The notes under the pieces were generated by a model that saw only the letters and a program-made list of their open reading frames with translations, had not been told where the DNA came from and ran no database searches. Of a stretch of DNA of 64,000 nucleotides, positions 2,649 to 46,823 are shown piece by piece (position 1 is the stretch's first letter; each line of letters begins with the position of its first letter). The stretch is from NCBI GenBank assembly GCA_025786725.1, contig JAHLTZ010000011.1:372001-436000 (forward strand), written 5' to 3'. The stretch comes from Syncephalis fuscata (taxonomy: Eukaryota > Zoopagomycota > Zoopagomycetes > Zoopagales > Piptocephalidaceae). Both the position numbers and the translations under genes were made by a program.

Positions 2649-4370
2649 ATGCGGTTTTCTCGCTTCTTAACAGCAACATTAGCGGTTGCTACATGTCTAT
2701 TTGCCGGTGTTGACGCTGGCATCCCATCAGTCGATGCTCAAGGATGTAGCATCCGTGTGCGACAGGATATTAAAAGGCTGAACCGGCAACAGTTGGATGC
2801 TTTTTTCAGCGCTCTTCGCACTCTAGTATCATTACCACGTCCAAACAGCTACGATGCGTTTGCTAATCTACACCCCAATACCAGACCAGAGCCCATGGTA
2901 CGGCATGGTTTTTACCTTGGCATCGCTTGTTTATCCGATCATTTGAATACCAATTACAACGCATCGATCCTAGTGTGATGCTTCCTTATTGGGTAAGTTC
3001 TATTTATTGCAGTTACCATTTTATTGATTCAATATTAATGTATTATTGTTTATGGTTTATTATAGGATTGGTCGGTTACTTCACAAGCACCCGACAATGA
3101 TATCATTTTTTCACCAACCTGGTTTGGCGGCAATGGCCGTAAGAGCGATGGTTGCGTCATGGATGGTCAACTTGCAAGATGGCGAACACATTTTCCTCAG
3201 CCTTACTGTCTTCAGCGACGTTTTAATGGCGGGTCCCGTCTAGGTTCCTTCTACTCGCCTGAGGCACTTAGAATAGTTGCCGATGAAGCGGCAAACTATG
3301 CCGAGTTTAATGCGAGACTTGAATCTCCCGCGCACAATCTTGTCCATATTAATATTGGCGGTCATATGGTTACGTCCTATAGTCCCAATGATCCAATTTT
3401 CTATATCCATCACTCGTTTATTGATATGCAATGGGCGCTGTGGCAAGCACGTAGTTCTCGAAATGCTAGAGACTATGGTGGCCGTAACGCCGATAACTCA
3501 CCTGCTAACATTAACGATGTGCTTACTCCGTTTAATGTACGCGTTGGTGATATTATGGACACTCGCAGTCTCTGCTACGTCTATGACAGACTAGCCAATC
3601 TCAATGAAAACAATAATAGCCGATTCAGTCGTCGAGGTCTATTGGACCATAGCTTGTTTGGTATTAGCACCGGCATCAGCACCGGCATCAGCAATAGCAT
3701 CGGTGCTAATGTGGGCGCCAGCATCGGCAGTAGCCTCAAGGCTAGCATCGGTGTTAGCATTGGCCACACTATACATGACATTGTATCGTCCTTTGTAGAG
3801 CACAAACTAATTAAATGGAAGACAAAAGGGCAGCGCTCTAGCAAGCAGGACATTGACGAGATTTATCAGCACAAAGAAGAACGACAGGCGGATGATCTTG
3901 AAGAGACTGATCGCAAGCATATCATTAGTCTTCGTACTTGCACACCGCTTAGAGAGGAAATTATCCGTCGACAAAATCTCAACGGCACGCTTATTCGTGA
4001 AACAGAGACCATGTTACGAGAGCTAGTTATTCGTCTTAATAAGCAGCCAGGCTATATCTCACCTGCTGCTATAATCAATAATCAAGAACTACTGACGGTT
4101 GTTGCAGCCGAACAGTCCACCGTTTACGTTGCAAGAGGCAATACCCAGGTGCCTGTTAGCGTGCCTCGCGCCGAAAATGGACAAGTTAATGTAACGGCAT
4201 TGGTTACGGCTGCTAATACCAAGTTGGCGGCACTTGACGAAATGAAGCAACAAGAATTGTCCGGCACCAATTCAACCGATGTCTATACTTACTCCGATTC
4301 AAGCACTGTTCCTATCGATCTTGATAACGTGTATTCTGTCATCCTTCTACTGGTTCCTCAGCTTAATTGA
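2649..4370 (+). CDS. Secreted tyrosinase (type-3 copper monooxygenase)
   Basis: Tyrosinases oxidise phenols and catechols to quinones, for example in melanin synthesis. Residues 1-23 form a signal peptide. The copper A site reads YDAFANLH, then HGTAWFLPWHRLF; copper B reads HNLVHINIGGHM and DPIFYIHHSFIDMQW, so all copper-ligand histidine regions are present. One intron (2993-3065) splits PYW from DWSV. A one-base shift is needed in the C run at 2873-2876 to link the signal-peptide frame to the copper A frame; everything downstream is intact, which suggests a sequence error. After the catalytic domain lies a Gly/Ser/Ile-rich segment with ISTG and ASIG repeats (about 3660-3780), then a charged C-terminal region of unknown role. 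Stop TGA at 4368-4370. Confidence 0.9.
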
Positions 4371-25671: not shown

Positions 25672-25929
25672 TCATTTGGTATCTGTAATTTTCACCGATT
25701 TATAAGCGGGCCGAGGAACATGCCTAATGGGTTCAATTAATCCTGGCTTATCAAGCGTACGGCGTACTTTTGCTGATTTGGGAGAGGGTCGAGGAACATG
25801 CCTAATGGGTTCAACTAATCCTGGTCCATTAGGTACACGACGTATCAATGCTGGTTTGGCGGTAACCGTAGCCGTACCAACAATAAAAAGCACAAATAAA
25901 GTGCAAATGGTAGTAGTAAAAAGCTTCAT
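25672..25929 (-). CDS. Small secreted peptide precursor with dibasic sites and tandem internal repeat
   Basis: An 85-residue intronless frame. Residues 1-24 are a signal peptide (MKLFTTTICTLFVLFIVG, cleavage near VTA). The mature part begins KPALIRR and holds two copies of a 15-residue unit, PGLVEPIRHVPRPSPKS and PGLIEPIRHVPRPAYKS, separated by KVRR. RR pairs sit before each copy, the arrangement used by Kex2-type proteases to release repeated peptides. The AKPxLxRR segment after the signal peptide also occurs in the micro-exon gene at 43.1 kb. A TATA box lies about 95 bp upstream on the minus strand. Function is unknown; a signalling or effector peptide is possible. Confidence 0.75.
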   Translation of the reverse strand: MKLFTTTICTLFVLFIVGTATVTAKPALIRRVPNGPGLVEPIRHVPRPSPKSAKVRRTLDKPGLIEPIRHVPRPAYKSVKITDTK

Positions 25930-42735: not shown

Positions 42736-43068
42736 AAAGCATACTATTACGCCATGCATCTATTGGTACATGTGCATCTCAAACCATTATTTGGATTAAT
42801 TTATTGGTTCATACTACACATCAATAGTGTACCTCATGAATTACAGCATACTATTATCTCATCATAGCCATAGGTTTAAATAGCCCACAAAATATACACA
42901 ACCAGCTGTAATATCATCATCCCACTCTACTTCTTATTAAACACACACTACTCTCCACTTTATATCAGCCACTCTCTACTTCTTGCTATACACACTCTAC
43001 TCTCTACTCTATACCAACCACACTCTACTATCTCTTTTATTTGTTTGTCTTAACAAATCAGTATTACC
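42736..43068 (+). promoter_or_regulatory. Promoter and CT-rich leader of the micro-exon gene
   Basis: Between 42940 and 43040 the CACTCTACT/CTCTCTAC motif is repeated many times, giving an almost pyrimidine/A-only leader just before the ATG. A TTAAATAG box near 42875 may be the TATA element. Pyrimidine-rich leaders are common in highly expressed fungal genes. Confidence 0.45.
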
Positions 43069-45847
43069 ATGAAGCTTTCTATTGCCGTCGTTTGCACTAT
43101 TGTCGTGGCTCTTATGGCCAGTACAGCCATAGTGGATGCTAAACCAACTTTAGTTCGTCGTGGTGGTATGTTGCAATATCACTAAATATGCCTTAGCGTT
43201 ATATTTACTAACAGTATTGCTAACTAATAATTATATTAGATCGTAAGTTATATTGTATATTAGCTAATCACTTACTAATTATATACCATGCACTGTGTTC
43301 GTCAAAAAATAAATATCAATAGCTGGTAGGTTGCATTACATATCAATAGAATATACACTAATTATGTGTCATTACTGTATCCATCAAAAACTTAATATTA
43401 GTGGACTGTAAGTTGTATTGTATATTAATTTATTACTCATTAATTGCATGTTATGCACATGTGTATCAACGACTTCATACTAACAGGCGGTAAGTAACAT
43501 TATATATTGCTGACTTATACACTAATTATATAACATTTATTATCTATATCAATAACTTAATATTAATAGCCAGTAAGTTGTATTGTATAATAATTAATAA
43601 CTTACTGATTATATATCATGCATCGTGTATATAAATAAATTAATATTAGTTAAATGTAGGTTATATTATAGACTTAACTGTACATTGGCTAATTATATTC
43701 ATATACTGTGCATATTAATAACTTAATACTAATAGGCAGTAAGTAGCATTGTATATTGACTGACTATGCACTAACTATGTGTTATGCACCATGTGTATTA
43801 ATAAATACTAATAGGTGGTAAATGATATTGTATATTAACTAACTATATATTAATTATACTACTCGCCGATTGTACTGCTTATTTAATATTAATAGAAAGT
43901 AAGTTGTAGTGTATATTAACTAACCATCCACTAACTATATACCATGTATTATGCGTATAATTAACTTAATAGTGTGTAAGCTGTCTTATATATTAATTAC
44001 TTATATATTAATTATAATATTTATTGATTGCATTGATTAATTAATATTAATAGGCAGTAAGTTGTATTGTATATTAGCTGGCCTTACATTAACTGCGCTA
44101 TTTACTAATTATATCAATTATTTAATATTAATAGAGGGTAAGTAGTATTGTATATCAATGAACTGTACACTAATCACATGTTGTTTATTGATTGTACCAA
44201 TTTTTTAATATTAATAGACAGTAAGTTGTATTGTATATTAGCTGACCTTACATTAACTATGCTATTTACTGATTATATCAATTATTTAATATTGATAGAT
44301 CGTAAGTGATATTGCATATTAACTAACTGTACATTAATCATGCTATTTGTTGATTGTACCAATTATTTAATACTAATAGCGGGTAAGTTGTGTTACATAT
44401 TAACTGAATGTACATTAACTATACTATTTACTAATTGTATTAACTATTTTATATTAATAGATGGTAAGTGGTATTGTATATTACTTAAATATATATTAAC
44501 TATCATTTACTGATTGTATTGATTATTTAATATTAATAGACAGCAAGTAGTATTGTATATTAATTGACTACTCACTAACCACGTGCTATTTAATGATTGT
44601 ACCGGTTATTTAATATTAATAGATCGTAAGTGGTATTGTATATTAATTGATTATACATTAACTATGATATTTACTGATTGTGCTAATTATTTAATATTAA
44701 TAGAATGTAAGTGGTATTGTATATTAATTGAATATATATTAACTACAATTCACCGATTGTATTGATTATTTAATATTAATAGTCAGTAAGTGACATTATA
44801 TATTAATTAGCTCCTCACTAACCACGTGCTATTTACTGGTTACACCAACTATTTAATATTAATAGATCGTAAGTGGTATTGTATATTAATTAAACGTACA
44901 TTAACTATAACATTTACTGCTTGTGCCAATTATTTAATATTAATAGTTTGTAGTGAGATTATATATTGACTGACTATACATTAACTGTTATTTACTGATT
45001 GTATCAATTATTTAATATTAATAGGCAAGTAAGTTGTATTATATGTTAATTGACTATAAATCAACTGCTATTTACTAATTGTAATAATTATTTAATATTA
45101 ATAGACAGTAAGTTGTATTATGTATTGACTGACTATCCACTGACTATATATTATATACTGTATGAATCAACAACATTAATGACATAGAATGTAAGTAGCA
45201 TTGTATATTAACAAACTATATTAATTATGTGCTATTCACTGTGTGTATTACCAAATTAATCTTGATAGGCAGTAAGTTGTATTGTATACTGACTGACTAT
45301 ACATTAACTGTATATCATGTATTGTGTTCATCAATAACTTGATATTAATAGTCAGTAAGTTATATTGTATATTAACTAGCTATTTACTAATCACATGATA
45401 TTTACTGTATCTATCAACAACTTAATATTAATAGATTGTAAGTTGTATTCATGTCAATAGAACATGAGCTAATTATATACTATGTGCTGTATTCGCTAAC
45501 AACTTAATATCAATAGATTGTAAGTGGTACTGTATATTAATTAATTACTCACTAACTACATGTTATACACTATATATATATCAACAACTTAACATTAATA
45601 GGCAGTAAGTAGCGTTGTATATCAATTGATTACTCACTAATTACATGTTATTTATTAATGGTATTGATTATTTAATATCAATAGAGAGTAAGTGACATTA
45701 TATACTAATTGATTACTTATTAATCACATGTTATTTATTAATTTTACTAATTATTTACTATTAATAGGTCGTAAGTAATATTGTATATCTCTGACTATCC
45801 ATTAATTATATGGCATAACATTTTTATTTACAAACACAGAGCCATAA
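43069..45847 (+). CDS. Secreted cysteine-rich peptide encoded by an array of 3-nt micro-exons
   Basis: Exon 1 (43069-43165) encodes a signal peptide (MKLSIAVVCTIVVALMAST, cleavage near VDA) and KPTLVRRG, ending in phase 1 at a GTATGT donor. Then come 32 micro-exons, each preceded by AG and followed by GTAAG or similar. They start at 43240, 43323, 43402, 43487, 43570, 43650, 43736, 43815, 43896, 43973, 44054, 44135, 44218, 44299, 44380, 44461, 44540, 44623, 44704, 44783, 44866, 44947, 45025, 45105, 45188, 45269, 45352, 45435, 45517, 45602, 45685 and 45768. All are 3 nt except 43402 and 43650 (6 nt). The last exon starts at 45840, with TAA at 45845-45847. The total, 207 nt, is in frame and stop-free (68 residues). 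The mature part has six Cys, C-x3-C-x3-C-x11-C-x2-C-x3-C. The 45025 unit has one extra A before its donor. Function unknown; Cx3C pairs recall helical-hairpin peptides. Confidence 0.8.
43166..45839 (+). repeat. ~81-bp tandem array of intron units
   Basis: Successive micro-exons are 77-86 bp apart. The unit consensus begins GTAAGTTGTATTGTATATTA, has CATTAACTA in the middle and ends in TTATTTAATATTAATAG. The flanks are conserved, while the three bases between AG and GT differ between most units. One unit (44543) has a GC donor. The array explains why no long frame is visible here. Confidence 0.92.
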
Positions 45848-46823
45848 TTACTTTCAAGACATCAGCATTGGTAGTGCAATCAAACCACTATTCCAATACA
45901 CTTTAGGTATATATTCAGTGAAAAGCAAGACCATTTGACAATTACGCCGTCCAGTCTATTCATATATCAAGTTTTGGCCAATGCTCCGGTTTATCCAGTC
46001 TTTAATCAATGGAATCACTATTTTATCAACAAGCTTGCAATCAGTTGTTTCTATTCAACTGTGCAAGCTTATAGTAATAAACTTATGGTTTCATCTTAGC
46101 TATATACAATCACATTGCTATATCTATAATCATGTTTATTTATCCAATAATGGCAATTATTGATCAAATAGTTAAATTAACAAAAGGCATGTATAATTGT
46201 ATCGTTTAAGCTAATAGGCATATATTGGTATGAATAGTAGTAAAGCTATTGTTATTATATAGCCAAATAATATTATGCTGAAATTAGAATAAATACGCTT
46301 TTTAATAAAACATGGCAATAAAGCATAAAATATTATAAAAAATAAATAGACAAATTATATATATGAATAATGATGACGAAACTATACTGTATGCAATTAA
46401 CCAAGCGTAATGAACAAAATAAATCAAAATCTACTAAAATAATACAGTTAGCAATAAACTTTAGCTTTTGTTAATATAGTTTCTACAATCTACAATATTA
46501 ATGATATAGACAAATATATAGTATGTGTATACAAGACAGATATGTACAGTACAACAATAATGATAAATAAATAGCTTAATAACCAATGACACCCAGCAGC
46601 CAGTTTCATCTTCAATAACACGGATATTTCGTTTAAATGTGTGGCTATTATAGTTATTTAACTGCCAAGTCACACTAAACAACCAATAGCATGCTCAATA
46701 TTGTGGAAAAAGTGATTTTTATTTAGTTAATAAAAATATCATAAGATTTGATACAAATCAAGTGGTTTAAATGATCTGTCATAACACCCTTTTAAGCTTC
46801 TTTCGCCATGTTCCACGGCTTTT
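45848..46823. other. AT-rich 3' region
   Basis: Follows the micro-exon gene's stop codon. No supported gene; the 60-codon frame at 45981-46163 is not convincing. Confidence 0.45.

What the first reader, a model, noticed from the sequence alone, without database searches (positions are those of the whole stretch)
43069..45847. A gene built from 32 micro-exons, 30 of them a single 3-nt unit
Seen directly: an exon with ATG, signal peptide and RRG is followed by 32 points where AG, then 3 nt (twice 6 nt), then GTAAG-type donor occur in series at about 81-bp spacing. Joining the spacers from the phase-1 end of exon 1 gives 36 further codons without a stop, then TAA 8 nt into the last exon. The joined part holds six cysteines in an orderly pattern, and five of them come from GCA spacers (one from GCG) completing TGC. 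Established: micro-exon genes are known in schistosomes, and short exons in effectors of other parasites, but those are mostly longer and far fewer per gene. Nearly one residue per exon over a whole mature peptide is, to my knowledge, undescribed.
Basis: partly seen in the sequence, partly recalled or inferred. Interest (0 to 1): 0.97.

Follow-up and report, generated by a model that had tools for sequence, protein, structure and literature searches.

The report
Fungal genes with one-codon exons
A fungus that parasitises other fungi appears to write many of its small secreted proteins almost one amino acid per exon, with dozens of 3-letter exons per gene and probably thousands in the genome, well beyond the micro-exon gene families I could find described.

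Summary
The array is real: 32 acceptor–spacer–donor points at about 81-bp spacing follow a signal-peptide exon. It is not a one-off. The genome, Syncephalis fuscata by protein names, holds 932 strict AG-NNN-GTAAGT points against 6 with 0–2 nt and 25 with 4–30 nt, and 150 scored leader-exon matches, the cap.

The joined spacers are coding. Codons that exist only across junctions avoid stops (4 against 32 in shuffles) and are rich in Cys (88 against 40). They share codon usage with 16 single-exon paralogues (rho 0.79; 0.08 and 0.02 in other phases), which encode similar Cys peptides uninterrupted; two of them keep the flanks of split genes.

Splicing is therefore strongly supported, but by inference; no RNA was seen. 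The window's own copy has a frame-shifting 4-nt spacer and may be decaying, an assembly error, or a gene that skips that exon. Function is inferred: processed Cys-rich peptides aimed at host fungi.

The parts
42875..42882 (+). TATA-like element (TTTAAATA) in a conserved upstream block
   Evidence: 20 upstream blocks (of 22 tried) align with a consensus holding TATAAATAGCCCAC; letters; promoter role inferred
42923..43029 (+). CT-rich leader (2.2 copies of a 49-bp unit)
   Evidence: CT-rich stretch conserved in the 20 rows
43069..43165 (+). exon 1: signal peptide, RR (Kex2-like) site, phase-1 end
   Evidence: the Kex2 reading is recalled, not tested
43166..45839 (+). 33 introns of 69-82 nt interleaved with 32 micro-exons
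43240..43242 (+). micro-exon 1 (3 nt)
43323..43325 (+). micro-exon 2 (3 nt)
43402..43407 (+). micro-exon 3 (6 nt); third exon is 6 nt in several paralogues
43487..43489 (+). micro-exon 4 (3 nt)
43570..43572 (+). micro-exon 5 (3 nt)
43650..43655 (+). micro-exon 6 (6 nt)
43736..43738 (+). micro-exon 7 (3 nt)
43815..43817 (+). micro-exon 8 (3 nt)
43896..43898 (+). micro-exon 9 (3 nt)
43973..43975 (+). micro-exon 10 (3 nt)
44054..44056 (+). micro-exon 11 (3 nt)
44135..44137 (+). micro-exon 12 (3 nt)
44218..44220 (+). micro-exon 13 (3 nt)
44299..44301 (+). micro-exon 14 (3 nt)
44380..44382 (+). micro-exon 15 (3 nt)
44461..44463 (+). micro-exon 16 (3 nt)
44540..44542 (+). micro-exon 17 (3 nt), followed by a GC donor
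44623..44625 (+). micro-exon 18 (3 nt)
44704..44706 (+). micro-exon 19 (3 nt)
44783..44785 (+). micro-exon 20 (3 nt)
44866..44868 (+). micro-exon 21 (3 nt)
44947..44949 (+). micro-exon 22 (3 nt with the poor donor GTAGTG; the chaining script took 6 nt with a later donor)
45025..45028 (+). micro-exon 23: 4 nt, shifts the frame if used
45105..45107 (+). micro-exon 24 (3 nt)
45188..45190 (+). micro-exon 25 (3 nt), weak acceptor
   Evidence: missed by the strict chain
45269..45271 (+). micro-exon 26 (3 nt)
45352..45354 (+). micro-exon 27 (3 nt)
45435..45437 (+). micro-exon 28 (3 nt)
45517..45519 (+). micro-exon 29 (3 nt)
45602..45604 (+). micro-exon 30 (3 nt)
45685..45687 (+). micro-exon 31 (3 nt)
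45768..45770 (+). micro-exon 32 (3 nt)
45840..46081 (+). terminal exon: TAA at 45845-45847, then a 3' region conserved with two unsplit paralogues, AATAAA at 46076-46081

Best explanation
The array belongs to a large S. fuscata family of secreted-peptide genes. Exon 1 encodes a signal peptide ending in a Kex2-type RR site. The short mature peptide is spelled by a run of 3-nt exons between introns of about 78 nt, all in phase 1, so each micro-exon gives the last two letters of one codon and the first of the next. Splicing probably works by intron definition, one intron at a time, because an exon of 3 nt has no room for two spliceosomes; after each step the growing upstream exon faces the next 5' splice site, as in recursive splicing. 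The products are often hypervariable Cys-rich peptides (CxxCxxxC-like), plus helical-looking and other proteins without that pattern, and are most likely secreted effectors or antifungal peptides used on host fungi. Shown by sequence: the arrays, the coding of the joined spacers, and single-exon paralogues. Inferred: splicing in vivo, splicing order, secretion, function. The window's own copy has a 4-nt spacer and may not make the full peptide.
For: Spacer length: 932 strict hits at 3 nt against 6 at 0-2 nt and 25 at 4-30 nt; in 42 fetched arrays, chained with spacers of 0-12 nt allowed, 825 of 865 strong points are 3 nt and 855 are multiples of 3. Coding: 643 junctions of 33 non-duplicate arrays give 4 phase-1 stops against 32.0 +- 4.4 and 88 Cys against 40.3 +- 4.9 in 2000 within-array shuffles, none of which reaches either value; phase 2 shows no such signal (60 stops against 63.7). 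Codon usage of phase-1 junction codons follows 16 unsplit paralogues (rho 0.79; phases 0 and 2 give 0.08 and 0.02), and TGC makes up 10.3% against 11.1%. Unsplit relatives: 16 single-exon paralogues with leader and Cys peptide; their HMM scores 12 of 31 joined pieces above 5 bits, sum 140.9, against at most 45.5 in 200 shuffles. Unsplit L034 and L049 keep the upstream region (80-84%) and 3' region (88-90%) of split genes. In all of the 27 (of 42) arrays whose exon 1 was modelled, exon 1 ends in phase 1.
Against: No RNA or peptide data. The window's copy has a 4-nt spacer, a GC donor and a poor donor. Stop-poor readings are not unique to forward phase 1: spacers read as codons (phase 0) also hold only 4 stops in 643, with 2 three-nt spacers that are stops against 17.8 expected, and one reverse-strand phase holds 3 of 655. 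Codon bias (almost no TTA, CTA, TCA) can explain these, and forward phase 0 lacks the Cys and codon-usage signal, but the stop count alone would not decide. Rho against five ordinary window frames is only 0.41, and synonymous usage also correlates in other phases (0.36-0.62, against 0.73-0.76). Four of 31 arrays with at least 10 points have a junction stop; the window array alone is not significant (0 stops, 1.08 expected, P 0.27). Nineteen of 31 joined pieces score 5 bits or less, and several arrays (L011, L016, L017, L020, L032) lack the Cys pattern. The 11 annotated relatives retrieved show no micro-exon peptide that I recognised by eye.
Confidence: 0.9

Rival explanations
1. The array is a minisatellite of about 81 bp whose unit happens to contain splice-site-like motifs; nothing is spliced at the spacers, and the 3-nt constancy is copied from a founding unit.
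For: Units are similar, and neighbouring introns are more alike (0.705) than introns of different arrays (0.651); tandem repeats found; lengths could be inherited by unit duplication.
Against: Codons that exist only across junctions are rich in Cys, poor in stops and match the codon usage of unsplit paralogues in one phase; joined pieces resemble unsplit peptides far more in the true order than in shuffled orders.
Confidence: 0.03
2. Compatible with the best explanation: the family is spliced through micro-exons, but the window's copy is a decaying pseudogene, or its 4-nt spacer is an assembly error.
For: Only 4-nt hit of the strict motif in the genome, with a poor donor one unit upstream.
Against: The upstream block, the 3' region and the first 22 spacers are in order, and an isoform without the 4-nt exon keeps the frame.
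Confidence: 0.5
3. The arrays are recursive-splicing ratchets: most transcripts splice from exon 1 to the terminal exon, and the 3-nt pieces are by-products.
For: AG-NNN-GT resembles ratchet points; any set of 3-nt exons can be skipped in frame (direct from the lengths).
Against: Constraint on junction codons needs many exons joined in order in translated products.
Confidence: 0.05
4. About origin: single-exon genes are the ancestors, and split ones arose by repeated insertion of an intron family into coding sequence, rather than unsplit ones arising from cDNA-mediated loss of all introns.
For: Within arrays, introns 85-95% identical flank spacers that are near random; at 95% or more, upstream spacers match fully in 22 of 45 pairs and in two letters in only 3: introns copy largely independently of the codon.
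Against: Insertion alone would not space introns exactly 3 nt apart; unsplit L067 nests in a supported split clade (7 changes in all, at least 3 forced).
Confidence: 0.3

Closest known systems
Schistosome micro-exon genes (MEGs)
   Same: secreted proteins, about 80% of the coding region in short symmetric exons, proposed source of variants by alternative splicing (PMC5825161, passage read)
   Different: their exons are 6-36 bp; here mostly 3 nt, up to 84 points in one array, in a fungus; no sequence comparison was made
Aphid bicycle and megacycle genes
   Same: large, fast-evolving family of putative effectors with many small internal exons, almost all starting at codon position 2, as the spacers here do; megacycle has over 100 microexons (PMC9168663, passages read)
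   Different: about 17 exons on average; megacycle codes for about 2000 aa, so about 20 residues per exon by those figures; here about one
Single ultra-small exons: 1 nt in Arabidopsis APC11 and Fusarium CYP621A
   Same: show that spliceosomes, fungal ones included, can join exons of 1-3 nt; intron definition plus recursive splicing proposed (PMC4674806, PMC12940212, passages read); the latter also cites exons of 2-5 bp in Arabidopsis, Drosophila and humans
   Different: one such exon in a gene, not a whole mature peptide
Recursive splicing ratchet points
   Same: juxtaposed acceptor and donor, stepwise removal (PMC8605326, abstract start in the listing)
   Different: ratchet points lie in long introns and leave no exon (the latter recalled); here each step leaves 3 coding nt

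Membership tests
Schistosome MEG family | exons of 6-36 bp making up about 80% of the coding region | tested here: not met
   29 of 32 spacers are 3 nt; fungal genome
Schistosome MEG family | secreted product with symmetric exons | tested here: met
   hydrophobic leader plus RR; 855 of 865 strong spacers are multiples of 3; secretion itself inferred
Schistosome MEG family | variants by alternative splicing | not testable with these tools
   no RNA
Aphid bicycle genes | sequence homology to bicycle proteins | not tested
   no aphid sequence fetched; profile search A1 returned 11 proteins, all S. fuscata
Micro-exon gene in the general sense | many very short exons joined into one reading frame | tested here: met
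   junction codons under coding constraint; RNA proof missing
S. fuscata leader family | shared signal-peptide exon ending in RR | tested here: met
   150 scored (the cap) of 330 candidates, all at E 1.6e-7 or better
S. fuscata leader family | mature CxxCxxxC-like Cys core | tested here: inconclusive
   window core reads CxxxCxxxC, as in unsplit L071 and L074; its two pieces score 3.1 and 9.4 bits with the unsplit HMM; 1 of 100 shuffles reaches the first piece's best alignment

The most novel reading that the evidence does not exclude
A fungus uses one-codon exons as a peptide-diversifying system. Because nearly every exon is 3 nt in one phase, any of them can be skipped, gained, lost or exchanged without breaking the frame. 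Near-identical introns let units recombine and homogenise while the codons between them differ, so peptides would change residue by residue both in evolution and, by exon skipping, within one cell, giving mixtures of secreted variants aimed at host fungi.
Probability: 0.25. Interest if true: 0.98.

Novelty: new variant of a known kind. Interest (0 to 1): 0.94.

Why it matters
If confirmed, exons near the lower size limit would be the rule in a gene family rather than an exception: roughly 4,000 exons of 3 nt in one 29-Mb genome (rough estimate). It tests how splicing works when exons have no room for exon-bound factors. It would show that gene finders can miss a whole class of secreted proteins, and it gives a natural system in which peptide length and sequence can change one residue at a time. 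Single-exon paralogues in the same genome make both splicing and evolution directly testable.

Tried and rejected
Rejected: plain minisatellite; reading spacers in phase 0 or 2; a single freak gene. My first guess of organism, an amphibian chytrid (searched for, 0 papers), was wrong; names of database proteins gave S. fuscata. Led nowhere: Rfam scan of the window (0 matches); Pfam for family proteins (only matches below cut-off); peptides joined from L010 and L020 against the genome (0 candidates; the tool warns that such an empty answer shows nothing) and L020 against the protein database; AlphaFold model of P0007 (mean pLDDT 63.5; two helices in the mature part, blocks at 70–83) against PDB (0 of 33 matches at E 0.001 or better). 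Positive selection on spacers was considered: in 10 of 18 paralogue pairs, the diverged ones, spacers differ at 20–51% of positions against 4–20% in intron bodies; the 8 near-identical pairs show 0–4% against 0–2%. But codon position 3 is raised too, and amplified units can be aligned out of register, so I do not claim it. I did not study ordinary introns of this genome.

Full report
What is there. Exon 1 (43069–43165) encodes a hydrophobic leader ending RRG and stops in phase 1 before GTATGT. From 43240 to 45770 there are 32 points where an acceptor AG, a short spacer and a donor follow each other. Spacer lengths are 29 × 3 nt, 2 × 6 nt and 1 × 4 nt (45025–45028). The 33 introns are 69–82 nt long. 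The terminal exon starts at 45840, with TAA at 45845–45847. As the letters stand, use of all 32 points shifts the frame there and it stays open to codon 88; an isoform without that one exon ends at the TAA after 67 codons. The form [TC]AG-NNN-GTAAGT occurs 24 times in the 2.6-kb array, 2 times in the rest of the window on the + strand and 0 on the − strand; a looser form occurs 30, 25 and 24 times. At 44947 I count 3 nt with a poor donor; the chaining script took 6 nt with a later donor, and the script counts below use that.

Whose genome. The window is contig C13 of an assembly of 28.95 Mb in 299 contigs. Database relatives of the leader family are all named Syncephalis fuscata (4 of 4, 11 of 11). 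Contig lengths printed with them equal those of this assembly (for example 782257, 180743, 571950 and 1005272), and three annotated proteins (P0001, P0006, P0007) equal open frames that I read in fetched stretches. Syncephalis is in Zoopagales, Zoopagomycota; that it parasitises other fungi is recalled, with papers seen only as a listing.

It is a family. The leader exon has 150 scored matches, the cap, among 330 candidates, all at E 1.6e-7 or better. Of the 30 best leader loci, 26 have an array of at least 7 points in the stretch fetched (up to 1.5 kb downstream), one has 6 and three have none. The strict motif ATTAATAG-spacer-GTAAGTNG has 932 hits for 3 nt with 0 for the reversed control, 6 hits for 0–2 nt with 0 and 25 for 4–30 nt with 4; the only 4-nt hit is the window's own. 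In 33 non-duplicate arrays 146 of 667 three-nt points fit the strict motif, so the genome may hold about 4,000 such exons. This is rough, since loci were chosen by motif or leader. One array, L020, has 84 points and reads as a Gln- and Leu-rich, helical-looking protein.

The joined spacers are coding. I chained points without regard to frame, spacers of 0–12 nt allowed: 42 arrays of at least 7 points, 891 points, 825 of 865 strong ones exactly 3 nt and 855 multiples of 3. Nine near-duplicate arrays were dropped before counting. In the remaining 33, 643 junctions form phase-1 codons from the last letter of one spacer and the first two of the next. They hold 4 stops against 32.0 ± 4.4 in 2000 within-array shuffles, and 88 Cys against 40.3 ± 4.9; no shuffle reached either value. 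Phase 2 shows 60 stops against 63.7 and 31 Cys against 26.0; phase 0, the spacer itself, shows 4 stops and 7 Cys and cannot be tested by this shuffle. Codon frequencies of phase-1 junction codons correlate with those of 16 unsplit paralogues at rho 0.79, against 0.08 in phase 0 and 0.02 in phase 2; against five ordinary window frames the values are 0.41, 0.00 and 0.15 for phases 1, 0 and 2.

Results against. Few stops alone would not decide the phase: three-nt spacers that are stops are rare (2 seen, 17.8 expected), and one reverse-strand phase has 3 stops in 655. Near absence of TTA, CTA and TCA codons, seen also in unsplit genes, can account for this; it is an inference. Synonymous usage correlates in all phases, most in phase 1 (0.76 and 0.73; others 0.36–0.62). 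Four of 31 arrays of at least 10 points contain a junction stop, and the window array alone is too short to prove the point (0 stops, 1.08 expected).

Unsplit relatives. Of 21 loci read, 16 are distinct single-exon paralogues with the leader and then a Cys peptide, mostly about 35 residues, in one open frame; one of the other five repeats another, one is split, and three carry the leader on other proteins. They had been fetched for matches that run past the leader or for long open frames. An HMM of their mature parts scores 12 of 31 joined pieces above 5 bits, sum 140.9; over 200 shuffles of spacer order the sum averages 24.2 with maximum 45.5 and at most 4 pieces pass 5 bits; phases 0 and 2 give none. 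The window's two pieces score 3.1 and 9.4 bits. In pairwise tests 14 of 32 pieces beat at least 99 of 100 of their own shuffles, among them the window's first piece. In an alignment of nine joined peptides that I chose for the Cys pattern and two unsplit ones, three Cys are invariant; one row, L022, depends on a 9-nt spacer. Unsplit L034 and L049 align with the window upstream of the ATG (80–82% over 476–518 nt) and with its 3' region (88–90% over 299–455 nt). So the same kind of transcription unit exists with and without the micro-exons. A tree of 48 leaders needs 7 changes between split and unsplit, at least 3 forced by well-supported branches. Whole loss of the introns through recombination with a spliced cDNA would explain unsplit genes nested among split ones, and would itself be a trace of the splicing; this is inference.

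How the arrays change. Intron bodies are 0.669 identical within and 0.651 between arrays, 0.705 for neighbours. Introns 85–95% identical within an array (322 pairs) flank spacers that match in all three letters in only 6–18% of pairs. At 95% or more (45 pairs), 22 upstream spacers match fully, 3 match in two letters and 20 in one or none; downstream the figures are 16, 5 and 24. So intron copies and codons are largely uncoupled; conversion between introns, insertion, or unit duplication with strong selection could do this, and I cannot choose.

Mechanism. An exon of 3 nt is hard to recognise by exon definition; introns of about 78 nt suit intron definition, and each removal leaves a longer upstream exon facing the next donor. 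The authors of the 1-nt exon paper proposed this combination (PMC4674806, passages read). The leader, the RR site and the Cys pattern suggest secreted, processed peptides. A model of the annotated unsplit P0007 gives two helices in the mature part with modest confidence, and no significant PDB match. In a parasite of fungi, effectors or antifungal peptides are the likeliest role; nothing here tests it.

Literature. All ten paper searches cover only openly licensed PMC papers, and I judged by the titles and abstract starts listed (in one search, 20 of 1,624, 12 of 33). None of those listed shows a gene family with serial 3-nt exons. MEGs have symmetric exons of 6–36 bp (PMC5825161); bicycle genes average about 17 exons and a megacycle gene has over 100 microexons (PMC9168663); 1-nt exons are known in Arabidopsis and Fusarium (PMC4674806, PMC12940212), and the latter paper cites small exons of 2–10 residues in fungi; a 2024 abstract says that functional microexons had not been described before in filamentous fungi (PMC11121469). 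From each of these I read passages only.

Verdict. RNA is the missing proof.

Noticed in passing
L020 (C2:652500-662499, - strand): An array of 84 points whose phase-1 reading is a Gln/Leu-rich, helical-looking protein without the Cys pattern; one 2-nt spacer, one junction stop; no homologue found.
   Followed up: partly
L017/L018 (C2:517500-525500 and 534500-542500): Two nearly identical arrays, on opposite strands of one contig, with a helical-looking reading; one spacer is 2 nt in one copy and 3 nt in the other.
   Followed up: partly
L043 (C146:383976-387071): Leader exon followed by only 6 strong points in the 1.5 kb fetched; the rest was not worked out.
   Followed up: no
L059, L060 (C222, C278) and P0010, P0011: The same leader on a different protein (KCRDDDGYCTSC region), read as one open frame in L059 and L060; P0011 looks like a model of a related gene read in another frame.
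   Followed up: no
L057 (C172:5350-6250): The leader on a 178-aa Asn/Gln-rich single-exon protein with no Cys in its mature part.
   Followed up: no
window 3159-4370: Open frame with a tyrosinase central domain (Pfam E 4.1e-17).
   Followed up: no
window 25708-25859: Two tandem copies of a 78-bp unit, 78% alike.
   Followed up: no
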